Shown piece after piece: positions 44,532 through 55,827 of a stretch of DNA of 64,000 nucleotides. Origin of the DNA: Halolamina salifodinae (lineage in GTDB: Archaea > Halobacteriota > Halobacteria > Halobacteriales > Haloferacaceae); assembly GCF_017874235.1 (NCBI RefSeq), contig NZ_JAGGLC010000002.1:62001-126000 (forward strand), given 5' to 3'. The notes under the pieces are model-generated. The model was not told the origin of the DNA, made no database searches, and worked only from the letters and a program-made list of their open reading frames with translations. A program made the position numbers and the translations under genes. Positions within the stretch are counted from its first letter, which is position 1. Each line of letters starts with the position of its first letter.

Positions 44532-44783
44532 ATGCCAGAAACCACAGATCCGCCCGAGGGAACCGGGGGAATCGTCTTCTTCAGAACTGCTGACCGCGAC
44601 TCGGTCGTCGACTGGTACCGCGAGGTCGTCGGCGCCGAGACGTGGCTGGAACAGCCGGGCTGTACGATCCTCGCGTTCGAGAACTTCCGTTTTGGCTTCT
44701 GCGACGCCGAGGAAACGGAAACCGAGGGGATTCTGACGTTCGTCTATGATACGACCGAGGAAGTTGATGAGTTACATCACTGA
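44532..44783 (+). pseudogene. VOC-family protein, C-terminally truncated
   Basis: This 83-residue frame begins as a glyoxalase/bleomycin-resistance (VOC) protein: GIVFFRTADRDSVVDWYREVVGAETWLEQPGCTILAFENFRFGFCDAEE, ending VYDTTEEVDELHH. Family members run on for about 40 more residues, with a second beta-alpha-beta unit (DPDGRxxEF-type) that is missing here. From about 44745 the codon bias changes (GAT, GTT, TTA, CAT) and the DNA turns A/T-rich, so the gene was cut at the left edge of the accessory island. It may still be translated. Confidence 0.65.
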
Positions 44784-44975
44784 CTCGGTGAGGCTGCCCG
44801 TGAGAAACCCCATGAGAACGAACAGTATTGAATATACCAATTTTTCGCTGATGATCCTGACGGACGTACTGTAGGAATCAGTCGTTTCTCCACGGTACAC
44901 CCCCTGTATAAGGGAATATTGTGCAGTTGGCAGGTAGGAAGCAATCGGTGTTCCAGTAGGTCTGACTCTACTCAC
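44772..44975 (-). CDS. Possible small single-TM protein at island edge
   Basis: This 67-codon frame with a GTG start directly follows the DnaJ gene (gap of 3 bases). It ends with a hydrophobic helix (KLVYSILFVLMGFLTGSL). The region is A/T-rich and the frame overlaps the VOC fragment by 12 nt. It could be the last gene of the minus-strand operon or a chance frame at a recombination junction. Confidence 0.25.
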   Translation of the reverse strand: MSRVRPTGTPIASYLPTAQYSLIQGVYRGETTDSYSTSVRIISEKLVYSILFVLMGFLTGSLTESVM

Positions 44976-44978
44976 ACA

Positions 44979-45701
44979 TCACTGCAGGGTTTTTCTCACC
45001 GTTGACCACCCGCTTCGGGCCCGCCGTGCAGATCTGGTAGCGAACTCGGAGATACTTTCCCAGAGACGACGCTCTGTGTCGAGCAGCCATTCGGCGAAAA
45101 TCACGGCGAGAAGCGTGAGCGGGAGCACCACGACCAGTAAGAGGTCGCTTGTCACCCCAAATCCCGTCAGAAACTGCCCGATACTCCCCTCCAGCCCGAA
45201 GAAGAGGACGTACGCCAGAAGCGCCGGGACGCCGAAAGACAGCCCGTACGCGGCAACACGCTCTGACGTTTCCTCGTCGGAGGTGTCGTGTGGAGGGGCA
45301 GTATCTGCCGTCGGACCGGACCCCGGCTCCCACACGTGCTCTGCAGCCTCGTGTCCGCGAGTGTTTGCCCGCCAGTTGACGCTGGAGCCATCGCTCCGAG
45401 AACGGGAGTCTTCACTAGCGGACGACCGGTCGCGCTGATAAGCTTCCTTCGTTTCAGAGGATGACTCGTGGCCACTCCCACCGATGAACGCCTCGTGACC
45501 AACTTCGTCGTATCGCTCGCGCATATCGGGGTCCGAGAGCGTGTCGTACGCCTCTTTCAGTCGAATGAACTGCTGTTGGGCGTCAGGGTCGTCGTTCTGG
45601 TCGGGGTGTTTCTCCATCACGGCGCGTTTCCACGCCTCCTCAATCTCCTCCTGTGTCGCCGTCTCGGCTACCCCGAGTCGGTCGTAGTAGTTGGTCGTCA
45701 T
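44979..45701 (-). CDS. Membrane-anchored DnaJ-domain protein
   Basis: This 240-residue protein has a J-domain at about residues 3-70 (NYYDRLGVAETATQEEIEEAWKRAVMEKHPDQNDD..., with the HPD motif that stimulates Hsp70 ATPase). A Ser/Asp-rich polar linker (about 75-150) and two TM helices (AAYGLSFGVPALLAYVLFFGL; DLLLVVVLPLTLLAVIFAEWLL) near the C-terminus follow. It overlaps the HEAT-HNH gene by 4 nt (ATGA), so it is the third gene of the operon. It may recruit DnaK to the membrane next to the HNH protein. Confidence 0.82.
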   Translation of the reverse strand: MTTNYYDRLGVAETATQEEIEEAWKRAVMEKHPDQNDDPDAQQQFIRLKEAYDTLSDPDMRERYDEVGHEAFIGGSGHESSSETKEAYQRDRSSASEDSRSRSDGSSVNWRANTRGHEAAEHVWEPGSGPTADTAPPHDTSDEETSERVAAYGLSFGVPALLAYVLFFGLEGSIGQFLTGFGVTSDLLLVVVLPLTLLAVIFAEWLLDTERRLWESISEFATRSARRARSGWSTVRKTLQ

Positions 45702-46837
45702 TCGTTTGAGAATTTTCGTCCGTGTCTCGCCTCGTGACACCCACGACAGAGGGTTCGGAGGTTCTTCGGGTGGTCCGCACCGCCCTTGCTCCGAGGCATT
45801 GCGTGGTCGACGTGCAGTTCGCTCGAGCCACCCCGAGGTCCGCCGAGCGCTCCGCAATTGCGGCACTCGTAGCCGTCGCGCTGGCGAACTGACCGGGCAA
45901 TGGCACCCCAGTTATCCGGCAACGGCGGCGTTCGTTTCGTCCGATCTACCTTCGTCGGAGTCGTTCCAACGAACCAGGGAAGCACACCGGTCGGTGTCGC
46001 AATCGGCGACCGACGAACGTACAGTTGTGCCCGCGAGAACGGATAGAGCAGCGTTACGTGCTTCAGATGGCCGTAGGTAGTCCGTAGGGTTAGCTCGATA
46101 AGCTTGCCAACGGAGGTGTATTTGTTCACCCCGAGCGATCGGAAGTACTTGAGAGCGCGGTAGCTCCAGAAGAACACCGACGCTATTGCGAGCGGGACCC
46201 ACAGGAGGCCGGTAATCGCGGCACGAGTGGGCTTGCTGATTTTTGTCCTCAGTCCCGTCGACGCGAGGTCGTCCTCGAGCACACGGCTGGGCATATCGCC
46301 CCCTTCAAGCGCCTGTATCGCGCCGTCGAAGATATCTTCGTCGCCGTGGGACATCTCGACCTGGTCGATGTTTTCGACCGCTATTCGTGCTTTGAGAGTC
46401 TCTAGAGCTTCCTCCCGAGGCGTAACCAGATTGGGGCGGTAGTACGCTATCTTGGAGAGCGCCGAACCCGCGGCAACCCGTTCCTCGAACTCGTCAGCGT
46501 TGAGCAACTCGACCATCAGATCTGTCCCATCTCCGAAATCCTGCGGGAACCACGTGGCAAGGTTCGCAATCGTGAGGAGGATGTTTTGCCTCGCAACCGT
46601 GTGCTCGTCGTCGAGACGCGCGAGTATCGCGTCGCTGATGCTGCGTAGCTGTTCGGGAAAGTGCACGCTGAGCGGGACGAGCACGCGCGTCGCCTCTACC
46701 CTTGTTTCCGCATCATCGGCGACCAGGAGCGGCGGAAGGTCGGGCAAATGGTTCACTGCACTCGCTGGATCGGTTTCGGCGAGCAGCGCTAACCGCTTCG
46801 CCTGCTCACGTCCGTCCGCTGTAGAGTTGCCAGCCAT
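45698..46837 (-). CDS. HEAT-repeat membrane protein with C-terminal HNH nuclease domain
   Basis: In this 379-residue protein, residues 1-190 are helical repeats resembling HEAT/ARM units (VADDAETRVEATRVLVPLSVHFPEQLRSISDAI; ...VARQNILLTIANLATWFPQDF). At about 205-230 there is a TM helix (ITGLLWVPLAIASVFFWSYRAL). The last 75 residues are an HNH endonuclease domain: CRNCG, LHVDHAMPRSKGG, HPKNLRTLCRGCHEARH, with both zinc CxxC pairs and the HVDH/N/H core. A membrane-tethered nuclease with a scaffold is unusual. It is the middle gene of the operon, starting 6 nt after the lipoprotein gene and overlapping dnaJ. Confidence 0.8.
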   Translation of the reverse strand: MAGNSTADGREQAKRLALLAETDPASAVNHLPDLPPLLVADDAETRVEATRVLVPLSVHFPEQLRSISDAILARLDDEHTVARQNILLTIANLATWFPQDFGDGTDLMVELLNADEFEERVAAGSALSKIAYYRPNLVTPREEALETLKARIAVENIDQVEMSHGDEDIFDGAIQALEGGDMPSRVLEDDLASTGLRTKISKPTRAAITGLLWVPLAIASVFFWSYRALKYFRSLGVNKYTSVGKLIELTLRTTYGHLKHVTLLYPFSRAQLYVRRSPIATPTGVLPWFVGTTPTKVDRTKRTPPLPDNWGAIARSVRQRDGYECRNCGALGGPRGGSSELHVDHAMPRSKGGADHPKNLRTLCRGCHEARHGRKFSNE

Positions 46838-46843
46838 CCGTTC

Positions 46844-49105
46844 TCACCCGAAGCTGAGGACGACAGTCTGAGCGCTGGTGACAGTCAGTTGCTTTTCGGT
46901 GCTCTCTCCCTCGTACTCGCCGCTGAGAGTGATGTCACCGGTAAGTTCGAGCGTGTCGTTCAACAGTTCGAACCCGCTCCCGGCATCGTTCCGCATGTGG
47001 GACACGGATACCGTGGCGTCGTCGGTAACATCGTTACCGGACGAGTCCTCGACGCGGACAGTAACGTCGTACCCCTTCCCCAACTGGATGCCTCCGAGGT
47101 CGGTATCCGACCCGATTTCCTCACGCCCGATTGTAAACAGGTCGGGAACATCGTCGTCTGGACGCCCTCCCTGAACGAACTGGAGCGTATAGGGCTCGCC
47201 GGAACTCAACTCCAGTGAGAACGTGCCGTCGCTGGAGAGGAGCGCGGACGAGAACTCGCCACCTATCGCGAGCACCTCGCCATTCGTGACTGGCGACCCC
47301 GTCGAGTCCAAGATTCGACCGGAGAGCACCGGGTTCGAACTGGACTCTGTTCCCGTCGCGGTCGTGTCGAGCGTCAGTGTCACGGTTTGGGCGCTATCGA
47401 CGGTGAGTGACTTCCGAGTGCGGATGTCGTCGTGTTCCGCGACGATTGTCACGTCCCCGGTCAGTTCGATGGGGTTTTTCAGGATACCGAACCCGCTACT
47501 CGTGCCGTTGTTCGTGTGGCTGACGCGAATATTCGCGTCGTCGGTGATGTCGCTCCCGTCGGCGCCCTCGGCGACGATGGTGATCTCGTAGCCCGTTCCG
47601 ACGATAATCTCGCCCAGGTCAGTGTCCCCATCTGGCGTGACGGCGTCGATGGTGTACAGGTCGGGGATATCGTCGTCGGGGTAGCCTGCAGCACCCTGAA
47701 CGTACTGCAGCGTGTACTCGGTGCCCGACGCCAACTCCAGGGAGAAGCTTCCGTCACTCCCCATGGAACTGCTGGGAAGATTATCTGATCCGCCGAGTGC
47801 GAGCACTTCGCCGGTAGTGATGGGGCTCCCGTCTGTACCCTGGAGGTTCCCACTGACCGATGCCGCCGAACCCGACTCGCCACCGAGGTCGAGTTCGACA
47901 GTCCGTTCGCTCGTGACGGAGACCGTCTTGCGAGTCGTCGAGTTCTCGTACGAAGCCTGAACAGCAACGTCACCGCCCAGTTCGATTGGGTTCGCCGGGA
48001 GCTTGTTCGGGAACCCAGCACCGTCGTTCAACGGGGTAATGTGGATGTCAGCCTCGTCTGTCACGCCATCCCCGCTTGCGTCGGCGACCGAGATGGTCAC
48101 GTGGTACGCTTTCGGAAGCTCGACAGTCCCGATATCGGTCTCCGACGAGGGGGAGAACGCCCCGAATGTGTAGATATCCGGAATCGCATCGTCCGGGTAC
48201 TCTGCTTTCGCCTGCGTGTACTGGAATGTGTACTCCGTTCCAGCGGCAACTTCCAGTTCGAAGCCACCTTCGCTCCCCACATCCGCAACGGGAGCCTGGC
48301 CCGACGTACTGCCGCCAATCGCAACAACCCGCCCGACAGATACTGGTTCTCCACCTGCTCTCACGAGCGAACCGCTGACGGAGACGCTTCTCGAAGATTC
48401 GGTGGACGAGAAGGAGAACGTCACCGTCCGGGGACTCGTGACGTTCACCGTCTTTCGCTTCGTCGCTCCATCGTACTCCGCACGAATCGTGATTTCCCCC
48501 GTAACCTCGACCGGATTCTTGCGTAGTTCGTACATCGGCACGCCCTCGCCTTTCCTGTGGGTCAGGAACACCTCGGCGTCCTCTGTCACCGTCGTTCCAT
48601 CCGGTCCTTCCGCAACGACTTCCAGTTCGTGCCCCTTCGATAGTTGGATGGTCCCGAGGCCCACGTCTGATTCCGAAGAGACGGATTCTATCGCGTAGAG
48701 GTCCGGAACGTCGTCGTCGGGGAATTGCTCAGTTCCCTGATGGTACTGAATCACGTGTTCAGCACCGGCAGCGACTGACAGGGAGAACGACCCGTCTTCG
48801 TCGGGCGTCGTCGTGGTTGGTTCTCCACCCTTCGTGAGAACTGCGACCTGTCCCGAAGAGACGGCACTCCCGGAGGTGGTCGTCAGCTTTCCGGAGATAG
48901 TTATCGAACTAGCCGCCTCTTGGTCGGTCGCAGAATCGGTCGCGGTGTCGGTCCCGGTCGTCGTCGGCACCGCCGTTCCCGTAGCGGTTCCGTCCGGAGA
49001 CTCCCCACTCGCGCTCTCCGAGCTCTCACTGCACCCAGCAAGTCCGCCTGCTGCACCCACCCCGGCGATTTGAATGAACCGCCGGCGGGACGTGTCGTCG
49101 TTCAT
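46844..49105 (-). CDS. Tat lipoprotein with four tandem beta-rich repeats
   Basis: This 753-residue protein has the Tat motif SRRRFIQIAGVGAAGGLAGC (lipobox LAGC, about 24-27), then a Ser/Thr/Gly/Asp-rich linker (about 28-70), followed by four repeats of about 165-170 residues. Each has ISGxL/VSGSL..., a GEVLA(I/L)GG-like strand, YPDDDIPDLYTI, DLGxIQLxKGYxVTVxV and KNPIELTGDVTIxAEY. They resemble carboxypeptidase regulatory-like or Ig-like domains. It is probably anchored outside the cell. GAGTAAACC at about 49133-49141 lies about 32 nt upstream of the ATG. It heads the minus-strand operon. Confidence 0.75.
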   Translation of the reverse strand: MNDDTSRRRFIQIAGVGAAGGLAGCSESSESASGESPDGTATGTAVPTTTGTDTATDSATDQEAASSITISGKLTTTSGSAVSSGQVAVLTKGGEPTTTTPDEDGSFSLSVAAGAEHVIQYHQGTEQFPDDDVPDLYAIESVSSESDVGLGTIQLSKGHELEVVAEGPDGTTVTEDAEVFLTHRKGEGVPMYELRKNPVEVTGEITIRAEYDGATKRKTVNVTSPRTVTFSFSSTESSRSVSVSGSLVRAGGEPVSVGRVVAIGGSTSGQAPVADVGSEGGFELEVAAGTEYTFQYTQAKAEYPDDAIPDIYTFGAFSPSSETDIGTVELPKAYHVTISVADASGDGVTDEADIHITPLNDGAGFPNKLPANPIELGGDVAVQASYENSTTRKTVSVTSERTVELDLGGESGSAASVSGNLQGTDGSPITTGEVLALGGSDNLPSSSMGSDGSFSLELASGTEYTLQYVQGAAGYPDDDIPDLYTIDAVTPDGDTDLGEIIVGTGYEITIVAEGADGSDITDDANIRVSHTNNGTSSGFGILKNPIELTGDVTIVAEHDDIRTRKSLTVDSAQTVTLTLDTTATGTESSSNPVLSGRILDSTGSPVTNGEVLAIGGEFSSALLSSDGTFSLELSSGEPYTLQFVQGGRPDDDVPDLFTIGREEIGSDTDLGGIQLGKGYDVTVRVEDSSGNDVTDDATVSVSHMRNDAGSGFELLNDTLELTGDITLSGEYEGESTEKQLTVTSAQTVVLSFG

Positions 49106-49215
49106 TCCACCGGGCGTATGGGCGGGGGGTTGGTTTACTCATCCACCGATTTGCCTTCTCACCCCCTGAGAAGCTTCAGATATCCTCCGTTGTACGATTT
49201 GGAAACATAATTGTT

Positions 49216-50154
49216 CGGCTCTGGTGAATCGCTGTAAGGCGGTAGAGTAGGTCGCCAAATCAAAGGAAGTGAAGCGGGAAATCGTCGATGCCTATGTCGA
49301 AAATCTCCCGCTTCACGAGCAAAGCGGTGTCGTTAGCTAAAAATGCTGTTGGTGGCCGAGGCGAAGCCGCCGCCCCCGAAGGGGGTGGGGGATTCGCCGA
49401 CTACGCCGTCGTTTCGCTCCACTGTCTCCGGATTTACTTGGCGAAACCATATCGTGAAGCGCTTGATCTCCTGAGCGAGATGCCGCATATTTTAGCCGAT
49501 ATCGGCCTCGAAGACGGCGATCTCCCGCATCACTCGACGCTAGTAAAGGCGTTTGATAGGTTGCAGATGAAGATCTGGCGAGTGCTGCTGCGCCTCTCGG
49601 CGCAGCTACACGACACCGCTGATCACGCCGCGATGGACACGACCTTTTTCGACCGTGAAACCGCCAGCAAGCACTACTGTCGCCGGACGAACTACCGCGT
49701 TCAAACGGTAAAAACGACCGCGCTCGTCGATACAAAAACGCAAGCTGTGCTCGACGTTCACTGTACGACTGAGAAACGTCACGACACACAGATCGGCTGG
49801 CAACTCGCCCGCCGCAACGCGGGCGAGATTGCCAGCCTCGCCGCCGACAAAGGCTATGATTGGATGCGATTACGCGAGAAATTGCGCGAAGAAGGTGTGA
49901 GACCGTTGATCAAGCACCGTGAGTTCCGGCCCATCGACTGCGCGCATAACGCGCGCATCGATGGGTCTCTATATGGCCAAAAAGCACTGTCTGAGACCGT
50001 CTTCTCGACGATCAAGCGAACGCTCGGCCACGCGGTGAGTGCCCGAGTGTGGTACCGCGAATTTCGTGAGATCGTTCTGATGTGTACGGTTTACAACATC
50101 AATCGAGCCGTGAAACAGTGGAATCAAACGCCATCTGGCGATTCACCAGAGCCG
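49216..50154 (+). mobile_element. IS5-type insertion sequence, 939 bp
   Basis: The element is bounded by perfect 17-bp inverted repeats (CGGCTCTGGTGAATCGC at 49216-49232, complement at 50138-50154). It is flanked by a 6-bp direct repeat ATTGTT (49210-49215 and 50155-50160) that fits a target-site duplication. It contains one transposase gene. It lies in the intergenic space between the divergent lipoprotein and FilR1-NTPase genes, whose own promoter boxes are outside it. The repeat boundary could shift by one or two bases. Confidence 0.85.
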
Positions 50155-50169
50155 ATTGTTCCAATATGA
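49294..50169 (+). CDS. IS5-family transposase
   Basis: This 291-residue DDE transposase opens MSKISRFTSKAVSLAKNAV, typical of haloarchaeal IS5-family (ISH) elements. Catalytic residues are in AAMDTTFFDRE (first D), SLAADKGYDWMRLREKL (second D) and YGQKALSETVFSTIKRTLG (E, in the usual Y-x-x-E-x-x-F-S-x-x-K pattern). The frame has no internal stops. Its stop codon (50167-50169) lies outside the right inverted repeat, so the last residues come from the target site. An ATG two codons upstream is an alternative start. Confidence 0.88.
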   Translation: MSKISRFTSKAVSLAKNAVGGRGEAAAPEGGGGFADYAVVSLHCLRIYLAKPYREALDLLSEMPHILADIGLEDGDLPHHSTLVKAFDRLQMKIWRVLLRLSAQLHDTADHAAMDTTFFDRETASKHYCRRTNYRVQTVKTTALVDTKTQAVLDVHCTTEKRHDTQIGWQLARRNAGEIASLAADKGYDWMRLREKLREEGVRPLIKHREFRPIDCAHNARIDGSLYGQKALSETVFSTIKRTLGHAVSARVWYREFREIVLMCTVYNINRAVKQWNQTPSGDSPEPIVPI

Positions 50170-50211
50170 ACATTTTTATACTCTGTTCTGTTTCCTTCAG
50201 TCATACATTCT

Positions 50212-53200
50212 ATGGACGAGCCAGCAACTCTGTCCGTCCTCACCAAGCGAGCCGACTTCATTGCAGAACTGTCTCGGCGTCCGCTCGAGAAACGAGAGAT
50301 GGTGGATGTCCTCGGTTACTCCCGTGCGACTGTCAACCGAGCAATTCGGGACTTGGAGGAGGCTCGGCTGGTCAAGCCTGTGGATGGAGGCTACGAACCG
50401 ACACTTGCCGCGACAGAAGCAGTACAGACGTACGAGACGTTCCTCGAGCGGGAGGGATATATCCTCGACTCTTCCGATGTTGTCCATCCGCTGAACCACT
50501 CCGAAGAGTTACCTTCGGAGGCTCTTGTTGGGGCAGAGTTCTTCGCTGCCGGTGAGGGATGCACAGAATGGAACGCGTCTCGCCTCCGCGAGGAAATCGA
50601 GCAGGTCGAATCCGCACGCTTGCTTGTCTCATCCGAGGAAGGGCTGTTGCTTCTCGACAAGTGGCAAGACGCCTTGAAACCACAAGAGCAGGACGTGGAA
50701 CTGTTCCTCGACGAGGAACTGTATGCCAGCATCCGGACTACTCGACAATCACTCACCTCGCTCGCTGCGGAGGGTGGAAAGGTCACAACGGTTGACTCTT
50801 CCGACTTTTTCGTCGCCCTTCTGGGTGACGGCGACGAGCAGGTAGTTTACGTCTTGGTCTACGACCCGGAGGTCGGGGAGTTCGGTGCCCTCAGAAACGA
50901 GACGGAAGCAGCGATTGACTGGGCCAGGGGGTTCCTCGACCGATTGGACGGAAGGTTCCAGAGAGTTGACGACGAACTGGAGACCGCATATCTGAACGAC
51001 AGAGTCGATATCTCGAACGGGCAGGACGCTGTGGAGTCCGTTCCACAGGTCCTTGAGGGGGAGGGGTTCATCGCGCTCACCGAGCAGTATTTCGACTCAC
51101 ACGAGCCCAGAGCGTTAAACACCGCACTTCGAACTGGGCTGAGTCTTGCTGACGTTCGCGAAGGCCACGCTATCGAGCGCGTGACCGCGGACGGGGACTC
51201 ACTGGCCGAGCAGATTCTGAGCACTCTTCGTCGCGGACGGGACTGTGCAGTTACCGGGGAACCGGGGAATGGGAAAAGCACACTCTGTAAGGTGGTGGCA
51301 CACGAGTGGTACGACCGGGACCTCGGTGCCGTCATCTACCGTGAATCCGGGCGGGGTGCTCCCTTCGAGTCGCTTGCGAGCCTTCGAGGGTATCTCCGGC
51401 GGGTCGAACGGGACGTGCTCGTCGTCGTCGAGGACGCGATGCGTCCGGAGGCGAACAAGGTGTTCCGAATCGCCGAGGAGTTCGAAGGCTGGGACGGCGT
51501 TCACTTCCTCTTCGACGCCCGTGAGTCGGAGTGGAACGAGACGAGGAACCTTCCGGTAGACGCCAGCCTCAGGGAGTACCAGCAGGACATCGACGAGATA
51601 CGGTTGGAGTCTCCAGATGGAGGAGAGTGTCAGGCGTTCATGGAGAAGTATCAGGGCACGACCGGCCGGGAGCTACAAACGACCGGCGAAGACCTCGTAG
51701 TCGAACTTGAAGGCGACGACGCCACCTCCGGGGGAATGTTCCTGCTAGCGCACACCGTCTGTCTCAGTGCTGACCCACTCGTTTCGGACGACTCTATCAC
51801 TCCGACCAGACTCATCGAGGACGTTCAATCTCGGTTGAATGCGCTCGTGGACAAGGGCTCCAGACCGGTTCTCAGGGCGGCGATGCTCTCTCAGTTCCTG
51901 AACGTTACCGAGATGCCGCTCCACGAGGAGTTCTTCCACGCCGTATCGCTCGATGACTCCGAGGAGGTCGATGTCGTCGCTCCGTTGAAGGAGTATGGAC
52001 TCGTCTTCGAGGAAAACGAGCGAGGGACGTTCCTATCCGTGCACAACCAATGGTCGAAACTGTTCGTCGAGGAGGCGCTTGAACTGCTCCCCGATTCGCC
52101 CGAGTTGTTCGGCGAGGCGGTGAACAGCGCCCTCCGTCTTGCAGCGGATGAATCGTTCCGAGAGGATGTAACGAGGCACGGTAGCCGCGGTTCACTCGCG
52201 CGGCGGTTGAAGGCTGATGCGACGAAGTGGGCGGACGATTTCGTACAGGGACTGTTCAGGGTTGGAGAGGAGATCCACTCCTTGGCGCCGTACTACGGCC
52301 GTTTCGACGACCCGACTTTCGAGATTCGGGAGAGCTGCTCTCCGGGAGTCGTTTACGACTGTGGATATCGGCGAGCCAAGATACTCGGACGCAGCGGCAA
52401 GATGGAGGAATCGTTAGACGAGTACCAGACGGTCATCGGAAGCATCTATCGGACGTGGAGCTCGGACCGATTCAGTGAGCAACTGGCGAACTGCATCGCG
52501 GGAGTCGGAATGGGGCTTCGGTATCAGGGGTGGTTCGATGCTGCGGAAGCACACGTTCGACACGCACTTCGAATCCACCAGGCACAGGACAATCGAGTGC
52601 GTGTCGGGGACTGCCTACTGTCTCTCGGGCAGATCGCGAACTATCGAAGCCAGTACGACGAGGCAGCACAGTACTACGGCGGGGCACGCGATGCCTTTGA
52701 GGAGACGGGTGCACGGGAAAAGCTCAGTAACGCCCTCGGGAATCTGGCTGTCAGTCACGCCGATAGAGGAAACTACGACGAGGCAGAGAACTACGCCAGG
52801 GAGAGCCTCGAGATTCGACGTGAAATCGGGTTCGACCTCGGAATCGCACAGTGTTACAACCTTCTCGCCAGAGCGGTGATCAGTCGTGGCGAGACACGGA
52901 CGGGGCTGGAGTATCACCGCGACTCGCTTGCGATAGCGATGGATCTCGGAAATCCAGAGTGGAAGTGTACGGAACTCAGTAATCTCGGGAGAACCAGCCT
53001 CATGCTCGGTCATCTGGACGACGCAGAGAAGTACCTCCGCCGGGGGCTAGACGTGTTCGAGGACAGGGACGATGCAAACACGCGGTACAACCTCGCGAGA
53101 ACGCTCCGGAGGAAGGGAAAGCGCAACGAGGCGAAAGAGCACGCCGAATCCGGGTTGAAGCGAGCGGAGACGGTCGAAGACCGGAGAGGGCAAGCTCGCT

Positions 53201-53733
53201 GTCGTCACGTACTCGGAGAAATCGCTCGAACAGGGGGCGACTACGAGGCTGCTCGCGAACAGTTCTCAGCGTCGATTGCCACGTTCCGTGAACTCGGCCT
53301 CCAAGGACCGGAGGTCTCCTCGCAAATCGCTCTCGGAAGACTGGAGGTCGACACTGGGAACCTCGATGCAGCACGAGATTCCGTCCAAGCGGTTCGAAAG
53401 AGACTCGAGACGGGTGATTCCTTCGACGAAGGGACGGAGGTTGCGTTGCTTCGGCTTCGGGCGGCTCTCGCCAGGGAAGCGGGAGAGACGAGCGAAGCGC
53501 GACGCCTGTTCGATGAGGCTGAAAAGACGGCAGCGGGCCTCGACGATAGTTACATGAAGGCGCAGGCACTCATCGATTCGGGACGCTTCGCTGCGAAACA
53601 CCGAGACGAGACGAAAGCGGAGGAGAGCCTCCGAAGGGGTCTTCGTATCGCCTGCGAAATCGGCGCGGAACCGCTCGAACAGGAGGCTGCCGGGGCGCTG
53701 AACGCCATCGAAGAGGTCCCGGCTGGAGACTAG
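50212..53733 (+). CDS. FilR1-type regulator fused to P-loop NTPase and TPR array
   Basis: This is a 1173-residue multidomain protein. Residues 1-70 are a winged HTH (LTKRADFIAELSRRPLEKREMVDVLGYSRATVNRAIRDLEEARLV). About 75-275 resemble the FilR1 sensor domain of archaeal regulators. About 325-600 are a STAND/AAA-like NTPase with Walker A GEPGNGKST at 349-357 and a Walker B-like VLVVVEDAM at about 402-410. From about 718 to 1160 there are TPR repeats (AxxxxRxALxIHQ, EEAENYARESLEIRRE types). The composition is less acidic and lower GC than the core genes. TTTTTATA at 50173-50180 is the likely promoter. It has no close named relative known to me and could be an inflammasome-like sensor or transcription regulator. 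Confidence 0.8.
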   Translation: MDEPATLSVLTKRADFIAELSRRPLEKREMVDVLGYSRATVNRAIRDLEEARLVKPVDGGYEPTLAATEAVQTYETFLEREGYILDSSDVVHPLNHSEELPSEALVGAEFFAAGEGCTEWNASRLREEIEQVESARLLVSSEEGLLLLDKWQDALKPQEQDVELFLDEELYASIRTTRQSLTSLAAEGGKVTTVDSSDFFVALLGDGDEQVVYVLVYDPEVGEFGALRNETEAAIDWARGFLDRLDGRFQRVDDELETAYLNDRVDISNGQDAVESVPQVLEGEGFIALTEQYFDSHEPRALNTALRTGLSLADVREGHAIERVTADGDSLAEQILSTLRRGRDCAVTGEPGNGKSTLCKVVAHEWYDRDLGAVIYRESGRGAPFESLASLRGYLRRVERDVLVVVEDAMRPEANKVFRIAEEFEGWDGVHFLFDARESEWNETRNLPVDASLREYQQDIDEIRLESPDGGECQAFMEKYQGTTGRELQTTGEDLVVELEGDDATSGGMFLLAHTVCLSADPLVSDDSITPTRLIEDVQSRLNALVDKGSRPVLRAAMLSQFLNVTEMPLHEEFFHAVSLDDSEEVDVVAPLKEYGLVFEENERGTFLSVHNQWSKLFVEEALELLPDSPELFGEAVNSALRLAADESFREDVTRHGSRGSLARRLKADATKWADDFVQGLFRVGEEIHSLAPYYGRFDDPTFEIRESCSPGVVYDCGYRRAKILGRSGKMEESLDEYQTVIGSIYRTWSSDRFSEQLANCIAGVGMGLRYQGWFDAAEAHVRHALRIHQAQDNRVRVGDCLLSLGQIANYRSQYDEAAQYYGGARDAFEETGAREKLSNALGNLAVSHADRGNYDEAENYARESLEIRREIGFDLGIAQCYNLLARAVISRGETRTGLEYHRDSLAIAMDLGNPEWKCTELSNLGRTSLMLGHLDDAEKYLRRGLDVFEDRDDANTRYNLARTLRRKGKRNEAKEHAESGLKRAETVEDRRGQARCRHVLGEIARTGGDYEAAREQFSASIATFRELGLQGPEVSSQIALGRLEVDTGNLDAARDSVQAVRKRLETGDSFDEGTEVALLRLRAALAREAGETSEARRLFDEAEKTAAGLDDSYMKAQALIDSGRFAAKHRDETKAEESLRRGLRIACEIGAEPLEQEAAGALNAIEEVPAGD

Positions 53734-53757
53734 ACGCTGGCGGTACCATCGGTGTCG

Positions 53758-54507
53758 TCACTCCACCCGCCGGATCCGGTCGGCGTCGACGGGCACGCCG
53801 GGCGAGTAGTGGACAAGCGGGTCGGTGTCGGGGCGCTCGAAGCCGTTTACGTCGAAGAGGTTCGTCGAGCGCAGGTCGAAATCCGTCTCGTAGAGGTCCC
53901 ACGGCGGGTGGGCCACGTCGCCGTAGAAGAGATCCGGGTCGGCGATTTCGTCGCCAACGTCGCCTTCCGCGAGGTAGAACCGGTAGTTCTCGACGAGGAA
54001 CCGGGCCAGCGATCCCTCCTCGGGCAGAAACCGATCACCTTCGGGGCCGTAAGTCGCATCGAAGTGGGCGTCAGCGACGCCCCGGTGGGCGCGATGGCTG
54101 GTGAACTCGACGGATCGCTCGTGGGGGCCGGTTTCGCCCGGCAGCGCGCCGAGACGGTCGATATCCATGTGGGCGCGGTAGTACGGTAGTTGGTAGAACT
54201 GCCGGGCGATGGCCACGCTGAGTCGGTCGGCGGCGTCGAGGTTGTAGAAGTAGATCCCCTCGCCGCCGTCGGGGCCCTCGACGTACGTCCGGAGGTTCAC
54301 CTCGCCGAACGTCAGTCCTAGCGGTCGCGGAACGCCGCGTGGGCGGATGTCCTCCATCACGAAGGCGATGATGCCCAGCCAGCCGCTGCCGTCGTGGGTC
54401 CGCGGCGTGACGCCGGGTGGGAGGCGCTCCGCAATGACATCGGCGTCGACGGGCCAGTGGGCGAACAGCGCGTCCCGCCACCCCATCGAGATGTAGTGGC
54501 GCTCCAT
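53758..54507 (-). CDS. DUF2071 (YqjF-like) protein
   Basis: This 249-residue protein of the DUF2071 family has MGWRDALFAHWPVDADVIAERLPPGVTPRTHDGSGWLGIIAFVMEDIRPRGVP, then FGEVNLRTYVEGPDGGEGIYFYNLDAADRLSVAIARQFYQLPYYRA, both diagnostic. The function is unknown; acetoacetate decarboxylase-like folds have been proposed for the family. GGAGGGT immediately upstream of ATG 54507 is Shine-Dalgarno-like. The frame extends upstream through a tandem-repeat region that is not coding. Confidence 0.85.
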   Translation of the reverse strand: MERHYISMGWRDALFAHWPVDADVIAERLPPGVTPRTHDGSGWLGIIAFVMEDIRPRGVPRPLGLTFGEVNLRTYVEGPDGGEGIYFYNLDAADRLSVAIARQFYQLPYYRAHMDIDRLGALPGETGPHERSVEFTSHRAHRGVADAHFDATYGPEGDRFLPEEGSLARFLVENYRFYLAEGDVGDEIADPDLFYGDVAHPPWDLYETDFDLRSTNLFDVNGFERPDTDPLVHYSPGVPVDADRIRRVE

Positions 54508-54549
54508 ACCCTCCGTTGGATCTCCCGGGACTTCCCCGTGTTGGCCGTG

Positions 54550-54765
54550 GTGAGCCACGGCGCACGAGCGGGCACGGCTCTTCGGCCGTGTTCGCGGAGA
54601 CTGTGCCGTGGCTCGACCGTCGTGACCGACGGCGCACGAGCGGGCACGGCTCTTCGGCCGTGCTCGCAGAGACTGTGCCGTGGCTCGACCGTCGTGACCG
54701 ACGGCGCACGAGTGGGCACGGCTCTTCGGCCGTGTTCGCGGAGACTGTGCCGTGGCTCGCCCGTC
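54550..54765. repeat. Three tandem 72-bp repeats with internal hairpins
   Basis: Units lie at 54550-54621, 54622-54693 and 54694-54765 and differ at only a few positions. Each contains CACGGC-TCTTCG-GCCGTG (6-bp hairpin). In the first unit GAGCCACGGC (54552-54561) pairs with GCCGTGGCTC (54606-54615). The block fills most of the 321-bp gap (54508-54828) between the divergent DUF2071 and DUF4349 genes. The remaining 63 bp hold the promoter of the latter (CTTTTA, 54798-54803). No conserved protein is encoded. Confidence 0.8.
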
Positions 54766-54828
54766 GTGACTCAAACGGCTCTTTGTTGCTAGCCAATCTT
54801 TTACTGGTAACAGGTCACAGAGCAACGC

Positions 54829-55827
54829 ATGCAACGGAAACGACTCCTCGTGGCTGTCGGGCTGGCCTGCCTGCTCGTACTCGCAGGCTGTACGGGCGGG
54901 GGCAACGGCGGCGACGGCGCCACACAGGCGTCGTTGGGCGGTGACGACCCCGAGTACGCCGAGGCGACCGGGACGCCCGCCGGCGACGAGGAATCGTCGG
55001 CGGCGGACGGCCGCATGCGGATCTACCGCGCCGAACTCTCGGTCCGGGTGAGTGAGTTCGACGCCAGTCGGTCGAACCTCACGAACGCCGCCCAGGGGTA
55101 CGGCGGCTACGTCAGCGACTCCCAGATTCAGGCGAACGAGCGCAACAACGAGACGTACCGCGACGGGAAGTTCACCTACCGCGTGCCCGCCGAGAACTAC
55201 TCCGCGTTCCTCGAGACGGTCCGCGCACAAGGGACAGTTACGCAGGAAAACGAGAACGTCCAGGACGTGACAGGCCAGCACGCTGATCTCCAGGCCCGAC
55301 TGGAAAACCTCCGGGCCGAGCGCGACCGCCTCCGCGAGCTCTACGAGCAGGCCAACGACACCGAGGACGTGCTCGCAGTCCAGCGCGAACTCTCGGACGT
55401 ACAGGGCGAGATCGAGCGCACTGAAGCCCGACTCGAGACGCTCGAGGACCGCGTCGCGTACGCCACCGTGACCGTCGAACTCCGGGAGGAGCGCCCCGAC
55501 GTGGACTACGACAGAGACCACTGGTACGACACCGGGGTGATCGCGGCGTTCCTCCAGTCCGTCGACGGCGCCATCGTCGCGCTCCGGGCGCTGGTGATCG
55601 GCATCGCCTACGCGCTGCCGTATCTGATCGCGTTCGGCGTCCCGCTGGCGGCGCTGGGGCTGGTGTTCAAGCGGATCGTGATCGGTGGCGGCCTCCCGTC
55701 GATCCGCGGCGGTGGCGATGGCAGCGGTAATGGAAGTGGCAGCGGTGGTGGCGGTGCCAGCAGCGACGCCGGGGACGCCGGCGACGATGCCGCGGCGTCG
55801 AGCGACGCCGACAAGCGCGAACGGTAG
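54829..55827 (+). CDS. DUF4349 lipoprotein
   Basis: This 332-residue protein has a Sec-type lipoprotein signal (KRLLVAVGLACLLVLAGC, about 4-21) and an acidic linker. The DUF4349 domain (about 65-250: RIYRAELSVRVSEFDASRSNLTNAAQGYGGYVSDSQIQ...) contains a coiled coil (DLQARLENLRAERDRLRELYEQANDTEDVLAVQRELSDVQGEIERTEARLETLEDRVAYATVTVEL). A C-terminal TM segment (LRALVIGIAYALPYLIAFGVPLAALGLVF) and a Gly/Ser tail follow. The role is unknown. CTTTTA about 28 nt upstream supports ATG 54829. Confidence 0.85.
   Translation: MQRKRLLVAVGLACLLVLAGCTGGGNGGDGATQASLGGDDPEYAEATGTPAGDEESSAADGRMRIYRAELSVRVSEFDASRSNLTNAAQGYGGYVSDSQIQANERNNETYRDGKFTYRVPAENYSAFLETVRAQGTVTQENENVQDVTGQHADLQARLENLRAERDRLRELYEQANDTEDVLAVQRELSDVQGEIERTEARLETLEDRVAYATVTVELREERPDVDYDRDHWYDTGVIAAFLQSVDGAIVALRALVIGIAYALPYLIAFGVPLAALGLVFKRIVIGGGLPSIRGGGDGSGNGSGSGGGGASSDAGDAGDDAAASSDADKRER

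What the first reader, a model, noticed from the sequence alone, without database searches (positions are those of the whole stretch)
44979..53733. Candidate four-gene module: lipoprotein, HEAT-HNH, DnaJ and divergent FilR1-NTPase-TPR
The lipoprotein, HEAT-TM-HNH and DnaJ genes form one minus-strand operon (gap 6 nt, overlap 4 nt). The FilR1-NTPase-TPR gene is divergent from it. The IS between them is 939 bp with a 6-bp target duplication. Without it, the gap falls from 1106 to about 161 bp, a normal divergent promoter region. An outside lipoprotein, a membrane-tethered nuclease, a membrane J-protein and a sensor NTPase with its own DNA-binding domain could form a surveillance system, for example against phage. 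Function is inference.
Basis: partly seen in the sequence, partly recalled or inferred. Interest (0 to 1): 0.82.

Follow-up and report, generated by a model that had tools for sequence, protein, structure and literature searches.

The report
Mobile membrane nuclease–J-protein gene pair
Inside a foreign stretch of a salt-loving archaeon's chromosome lies a gene pair, a membrane-anchored DNA-cutting enzyme and its own Hsp70 co-chaperone, that always travels together between unrelated haloarchaea and looks like an undescribed, chaperone-controlled (perhaps antiviral) nuclease; the other two genes of the proposed module are not part of it.

Summary
All five genes sit in one ~8.9-kb, low-GC insertion, replaced by 37 bp in a sibling genome. 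The four-gene module is not supported. Only HEAT-TM-HNH and DnaJ form a conserved unit. Among 392 haloarchaeal genomes, 7 (three families) encode full-length HEAT-HNH, and every one has this J-protein gene directly behind it; none of the other 385 has the J-protein. The two proteins diverge in step (Mantel r = 0.93). HNH residues and the J-domain HPD are invariant. The lipoprotein has no ortholog; the FilR1-STAND-TPR gene belongs to a widespread stand-alone family. Two of eight cassette loci carry an extra Hsp70 gene nearby. Best reading: a mobile two-gene, membrane-anchored nuclease whose folding, assembly or release is run by its own Hsp40 with Hsp70. Antiviral action at the membrane is the likeliest role but is inference. 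No known family fits; SNIPE is the nearest functional analogue.

The parts
45698..46837 (-). HEAT-TM-HNH protein (379 aa): N-terminal helical ARM/HEAT-like solenoid (res 1-178), conserved juxtamembrane motif GGDMxSRxLExDL...SKP (179-203), one transmembrane or membrane helix (206-224), C-terminal HNH nuclease (317-376). Core part.
   Evidence: homologs in 7 genomes
44979..45701 (-). Dedicated membrane J-protein (240 aa): J domain with HPD (32-34), conserved linker WxAxTRGHEAAEHVW-GSGPTADTAPP, two C-terminal transmembrane helices. Core part, translationally coupled to HEAT-HNH by an ATGA overlap.
46844..49105 (-). TAT lipoprotein (753 aa) with CarboxypepD_reg-type beta repeats; same strand, 6 nt upstream of HEAT-HNH. 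Local passenger or accessory; not conserved with the pair.
49216..50154 (+). IS5-family insertion sequence (939 bp, 17-bp terminal inverted repeats, 6-bp TSD ATTGTT); transposase ORF 49288-50169 reads slightly past the right end
50212..53733 (+). HTH (HVO_A0261_N) / FilR1-like / STAND NTPase / TPR protein (1173 aa). Member of a widespread stand-alone haloarchaeal family; neighbour, not part of the conserved pair.
44870..53757 (.). Variable genomic slot / foreign insertion (about 8.9 kb, GC 0.60 against 0.68 around it) between a truncated glyoxalase-like ORF and a DUF2071 gene; 37 bp in sibling genome G132, another gene in G213

Best explanation
The real unit is a horizontally mobile two-gene cassette: a membrane-anchored HNH endonuclease with an N-terminal HEAT/ARM protein-binding solenoid, and a dedicated membrane J-protein (Hsp40) made from the overlapping next gene. 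Shown: constant adjacency, parallel divergence, intact nuclease and J-domain residues, patchy distribution, foreign composition, insertion/empty-site polymorphism. Inferred: the J-protein recruits the cell's Hsp70 (DnaK) through its HPD to the membrane and there folds, holds inactive or releases the nuclease; the HEAT solenoid binds a protein partner or trigger; anchoring keeps the nuclease off the chromosome so that it cuts foreign DNA arriving at the membrane. The most likely purpose is defence against viruses or other incoming DNA. The lipoprotein and the FilR1-STAND-TPR gene are separate passengers of the same hot spot.
For: HEAT-HNH + J together in 8 of 8 loci from 7 genomes, 6 genera, 3 families. 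By profile, J occurs in 6 of 392 genomes, all among the 7 with HEAT-HNH; the seventh (G347) has J next to an IS-split HEAT-HNH; Fisher p = 1e-12 for 6/7 against 0/385, ignoring relatedness. Overlapping or near-touching junctions in six intact loci. Identity matrices correlate, r = 0.93, Mantel p = 2e-4. Invariant C325, C328, H342-V-D-H345, N359, C364, C367, H368 and HPD; HNH most like IscB/McrA HNH. One TM in each HEAT-HNH; two predicted TMs in most J-proteins. An extra Hsp70 gene lies close by in 2 of 8 loci: G268b (next but one upstream) and G292 (2.7 kb away); the G292 Hsp70-GrpE-like protein is unique among 106 genomes of its family. Own genome has one canonical DnaK elsewhere to serve the J-protein. 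Foreign GC3 0.69-0.72 against mean 0.87, and an empty site in a sibling. Precedents: SNIPE (PMC13190303), bNACHT25-DnaJ (PMC12169576), CmdTAC (PMC11618068).
Against: No experiment. No known defence system is beside the window copy, and defence-like neighbours elsewhere are few and heterogeneous. Six of eight loci have no Hsp70 gene nearby. A single TM would place HEAT and HNH on opposite sides of the membrane, and flanking charges are equal on both sides, so which side the nuclease faces is unresolved. The structure model is poor beyond residue 180 (pLDDT < 50), so HNH and membrane part are not modelled. HEAT-HNH is broken in 2 of 8 loci.
Confidence: 0.45

Rival explanations
1. Four-gene surveillance module: the external lipoprotein senses, the STAND NTPase relays and regulates, the J-protein and nuclease act.
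For: Shared strand and spacing for three genes, divergent promoter once the IS is removed, shared low GC3 and one insertion site.
Against: Lipoprotein has no ortholog; STAND-TPR is a widespread stand-alone family with no fixed neighbours; neither lies beside any other HEAT-HNH/J locus.
Confidence: 0.08
2. Toxin-antitoxin-like or addiction unit: HEAT-HNH is a self-toxic nuclease and the J-protein, with Hsp70, is its keeper; the pair persists as a selfish element, with defence secondary (TAC-like logic).
For: Constant pairing and tight translational coupling; HEAT-HNH is the partner that is broken in G268b and G347, while the J gene stays largely or wholly intact.
Against: Gene order is nuclease first, keeper second; J-proteins are catalytic co-chaperones, not known antitoxins; the G268b J-protein lacks its C-terminal end.
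Confidence: 0.2
3. Envelope DNA-processing nuclease: the pair handles DNA uptake, cell-cell DNA exchange or plasmid transfer at the membrane rather than defence.
For: Membrane anchoring; plasmid-like or mobile-element neighbours in several loci.
Against: Too rare (7 of 392 genomes) for a housekeeping uptake function; no transfer or pilus genes in constant association; not found in full length on any of 72,556 plasmid records.
Confidence: 0.12
4. Satellite of Hsp70-centred NTP-dependent conflict systems: HEAT-HNH/J is an effector plugged into HSP70/GrpE/GTPase/vWA clusters such as the one beside it in G292.
For: G292 has HSP70, Hsp70-GrpE, vWA, P-loop and J-CarboxypepD proteins within 15 kb; G268b has a divergent DnaK and degenerate membrane J-protein directly upstream.
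Against: The other six loci, the window included, have no such cluster; the putative GTPase and its partner match no Pfam family.
Confidence: 0.15

Closest known systems
SNIPE (membrane-bound anti-phage nuclease, PMC13190303)
   Same: Nuclease domain at the C-terminus of a membrane-anchored protein; anchoring as a way to spare host DNA and hit incoming DNA (for ours inferred).
   Different: SNIPE has an N-terminal TM, DUF4041 and GIY-YIG; ours has a HEAT solenoid, a central TM and HNH, plus a constant J-protein partner.
bNACHT25 with host DnaJ (PMC12169576)
   Same: An immune protein that depends on DnaJ to sense phage; shows J-proteins can be the sensing link.
   Different: There DnaJ is the housekeeping protein and the effector is a NACHT protein; here the J-protein is dedicated, membrane-bound and paired with a nuclease lacking NACHT.
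CmdTAC toxin-antitoxin-chaperone defence (PMC11618068)
   Same: A dedicated chaperone gene in the defence operon gates an effector.
   Different: SecB-like chaperone (from memory), separate antitoxin, mRNA ADP-ribosyltransferase; none of these is present here.
GAP1-N2 GTPase-centred conflict systems, HSP70/GrpE theme (Kaur et al. 2020, PMC7159879)
   Same: HSP70, GrpE and DnaJ-fused repeat proteins next to effectors; resembles the G292 neighbourhood.
   Different: No GTPase, GAP1, HSP70 or GrpE gene in the window island; GAP1 not detected even in G292.
ZorE (type II Zorya) and IscB/McrA HNH nucleases
   Same: HNH domain of the same broad type.
   Different: Similarity limited to the HNH stretch of about 60-75 aa; no ZorA/B motor and no RNA-guided features.

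Membership tests
SNIPE | DUF4041 domain | tested here: not met
   Pfam scan shows HNH and weak HEAT only
SNIPE | GIY-YIG nuclease domain | tested here: not met
   Nuclease is HNH, 9.7e-12
SNIPE | Membrane anchor of the nuclease protein | tested here: met
   One hydrophobic helix at 206-224 in the window protein and its equivalent in five homologs, central rather than N-terminal
[quoted passage not shown]
   Needs virus challenge
GAP1-N2 GTPase/HSP70 conflict system | GTPase and GAP1 genes | tested here: not met
   None in window; in G292 a P-loop protein and partner match no Pfam family
GAP1-N2 GTPase/HSP70 conflict system | Linked HSP70 and GrpE | tested here: not met
   Absent from the window island; present beside the pair only in G292 (HSP70 + weak GrpE match 0.006) and HSP70 alone in G268b
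Type II Zorya | ZorA/ZorB motor genes with ZorE | tested here: not met
   Only the HNH portion matches ZorE (5.9e-7, about 75 aa); no ZorA/B hit among the four island proteins
Toxin-antitoxin-chaperone (CmdTAC-like) | Chaperone of that kind and a separate antitoxin | tested here: not met
   Chaperone-type gene is a J-protein; no third conserved gene
J-domain proteins (Hsp40), membrane type | J domain with HPD motif | tested here: met
   DnaJ Pfam 5.8e-20; HPD invariant in 8 sequences
HNH endonucleases | Zn-binding CxxC pairs and catalytic H...N...H | tested here: met
   C325, C328, H345, N359, C364, C367, H368 invariant; activity not tested
HTH-STAND-TPR regulators/NLR-like proteins (FilR1 gene) | HTH + STAND NTPase + TPR in one chain | tested here: met
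   HVO_A0261_N 5e-12, nSTAND5 3e-8 (just under its cut-off), TPR_12 5e-35
Defence island gene | Consistent neighbourhood of known defence genes | tested here: inconclusive
   Type IIG RM fragment in L062, helicases and DpdA/Orf5-like genes near G268 copies; none in the window island

The most novel reading that the evidence does not exclude
An immune system built on a dedicated Hsp40: a membrane nuclease licensed by its own J-protein and Hsp70, so that disturbance of proteostasis or of the membrane by an entering virus unleashes DNA cleavage at the entry site. In some genomes it is wired to private Hsp70/GrpE/vWA clusters.
Probability: 0.25. Interest if true: 0.85.

Novelty: new variant of a known kind. 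Interest (0 to 1): 0.56.

Why it matters
A J-protein that is inseparable from a membrane nuclease was not found in the papers and family libraries searched here. If the pair is immune, it extends membrane-anchored nuclease defence to archaea with an unrelated architecture and makes chaperone-gated immunity directly testable in genetically tractable haloarchaea with just two genes. If it is not immune, it is still an unusual link between Hsp70 chaperones and DNA cleavage.

Tried and rejected
Four-gene module: rejected by gene neighbourhoods. Viral origin: no full-length HEAT-HNH in IMG/VR, phages or plasmids, only the HNH domain; the J family has only a J-domain match in one viral contig. Small RNAs or tRNA integration site: none in the island or window. 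Known defence family: PADLOC gives only HNH-, HTH- or TPR-level matches. HEAT proteins of G273 and G148 share the N-terminal region but are other proteins. The whole-length lipoprotein genome search failed twice on the server; a 350-aa part was used instead. The G268 contig join (HEAT-HNH#2 on C21, J#3 on C8) is plausible from orientation but no overlap was found.

Full report
Observation. DnaJ (44979-45701), HEAT-TM-HNH (45698-46837) and lipoprotein (46844-49105) are on the minus strand with a 4-nt ATGA overlap and a 6-nt gap; the HTH/FilR1/STAND/TPR gene (50212-53733) is divergent. The IS5-family element is exactly 939 bp (49216-50154) with 17-bp perfect terminal repeats and the 6-bp duplication ATTGTT; taking it and one duplicate away reduces the gap from 1106 to 161 bp. 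The longer DnaJ ORF start at 45866 listed by the ORF finder is not the likely start: the J domain begins at the ATG at 45701, and homologs start there.

The island. In sibling genome G132 the sequence on both sides aligns continuously, with 37 bp in place of about 8.9 kb of window sequence (44870-53769); in sibling G213 the same slot holds an unrelated aminotransferase-like gene. The left neighbour, a glyoxalase-like ORF, is truncated by stop codons in the window but intact in a sibling. Island genes have GC3 0.64-0.72 against a mean of 0.87 (s.d. 0.055) for 33 other window genes, and GC 0.60 against 0.68. So all five genes are foreign material in one variable slot; this explains why they lie together without requiring that they work together.

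What is conserved. A protein search over 293 haloarchaeal genomes gave full-length HEAT-HNH only in G268 and G292 besides the window; elsewhere only the short HNH domain or, rarely, the HEAT part matched. The J-protein occurred in the same genomes and nowhere else. A scan of 84,980 species genomes added Natronorubrum thiooxidans (it corresponds to G362). With profiles over 392 genomes, HEAT-HNH was found in seven and the J-protein in six of the same seven; the seventh, G347, has a J gene directly behind a HEAT-HNH that an IS has split. G268 has a second, broken HEAT-HNH at one contig end and a matching J gene at another contig end. In all intact loci the two genes are on the same strand, overlapping or a few bases apart. 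The seven genomes belong to six genera and three families, and the window's copy is closer to one from another family (58%) than to G367 in its own family (38%), so the cassette moves horizontally. Identities of HEAT-HNH and J over the eight loci correlate with r = 0.93 (Mantel p = 2e-4). Gene neighbours other than the pair are not shared, apart from a few mobile-element genes.

What is not conserved. The lipoprotein finds only generic CarboxypepD_reg-like repeat proteins (the whole-length query failed on the server). A weak 28% match over 133 aa to a PQQ-repeat lipoprotein downstream of the Natronorubrum pair is best read as shared lipoprotein composition, though a functional parallel cannot be excluded. 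The FilR1-STAND-TPR protein belongs to a large family found in 45 of 293 genomes, with a second member in the same genome at C1:177320; its closest relative (40%, G285) is not near a HEAT-HNH gene, and 29 family loci show no fixed neighbour. It resembles HTH-STAND-TPR regulators of the MalT/AfsR type and may be a stand-alone regulator or NLR-like protein.

Anatomy. HEAT-HNH: the model is confident for about 150 N-terminal residues, all helical, and matches designed and natural armadillo-repeat, peptide-binding solenoids. Next come an invariant motif GGDMxSRxLExDL and SKP, a single hydrophobic helix, a basic linker, and an HNH domain with invariant zinc cysteines and H/N/H residues. By sequence the HNH is nearest IscB and McrA. 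J-protein: J domain with invariant HPD, a linker with a conserved WxxxTRG motif, and two predicted C-terminal transmembrane helices in most members. Basic residues are equally common on both sides of the HEAT-HNH helix, so topology cannot be read from charge.

Hsp70 link. In G268b a divergent DnaK (43% to the window organism's DnaK) and a degenerate membrane J-protein without HPD lie directly upstream of the broken HEAT-HNH; in G292 a divergent DnaK, an Hsp70-GrpE-like protein, a vWA protein, a P-loop protein and a J-like/CarboxypepD protein lie within 15 kb. The Hsp70-GrpE-like protein occurs in 1 of 106 genomes of that family, only beside the pair. This resembles the HSP70/GrpE theme of GAP1-N2 conflict systems (Kaur et al. 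2020, PMC7159879), but GAP1 and GTPase domains were not detected. The window genome has one ordinary DnaK elsewhere. That the J-protein works with Hsp70 follows from its HPD and established J-domain biology; that it acts on HEAT-HNH is inferred from the constant pairing.

Mechanism. Most likely the J-protein holds, folds or remodels the membrane nuclease with Hsp70, and the nuclease attacks foreign DNA at the membrane. SNIPE shows that a membrane nuclease can cut phage DNA at entry and that anchoring spares the host (PMC13190303); bNACHT25 shows that DnaJ can be the sensing link of an immune protein (PMC12169576); CmdTAC is a precedent for chaperone-gated effectors (PMC11618068; only its abstract start was read here). 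None of these is homologous in the tested defining features. I put 0.9 on the two genes being one functional unit, about 0.75 on an active nuclease, and about 0.45 on the whole account with defence. Literature searches found no description of such a pair, within an open-licence library only.

Noticed in passing
L071:13890-19840 and L078:673-3477 (G292): Rare cluster of divergent DnaK, Hsp70-GrpE-like protein, vWA, P-loop protein and J-like protein with CarboxypepD_reg repeats, next to the HEAT-HNH/J pair; possibly a haloarchaeal Hsp70-centred conflict system.
   Followed up: partly
L070:1413-3902 (G268): Divergent DnaK followed by a degenerate membrane J-protein (no HPD) directly upstream of a broken HEAT-HNH gene.
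   Followed up: partly
L121:8428-10885 (G347): HEAT-HNH gene split by an insertion sequence, with the J gene behind it intact.
   Followed up: partly
window 44532-44870: Glyoxalase-like gene with in-frame stops near its 3' end; intact in sibling genome G183 (L102), so decayed at the island edge.
   Followed up: partly
window 54545-54770: 72-bp tandem repeat, 3.1 copies, 94% match, upstream of the DUF2071 domain and read in frame by the long ORF 53758-55521.
   Followed up: no
L083:7291-10557 (G000:C1:177320-179662): Second HTH-STAND-TPR gene in the same genome, with native GC3, followed by a putative lipoprotein gene.
   Followed up: no
L100:3855-5000 (G213): The same chromosomal slot holds an aminotransferase-like gene in a sibling genome: a small integration hot spot between the glyoxalase and DUF2071 genes.
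   Followed up: partly
L080:3484-12378 (G268 contig C21): TGT/DpdA-like genes and an Orf5/SspE-like gene near the second HEAT-HNH copy; possible DNA modification or defence island.
   Followed up: no
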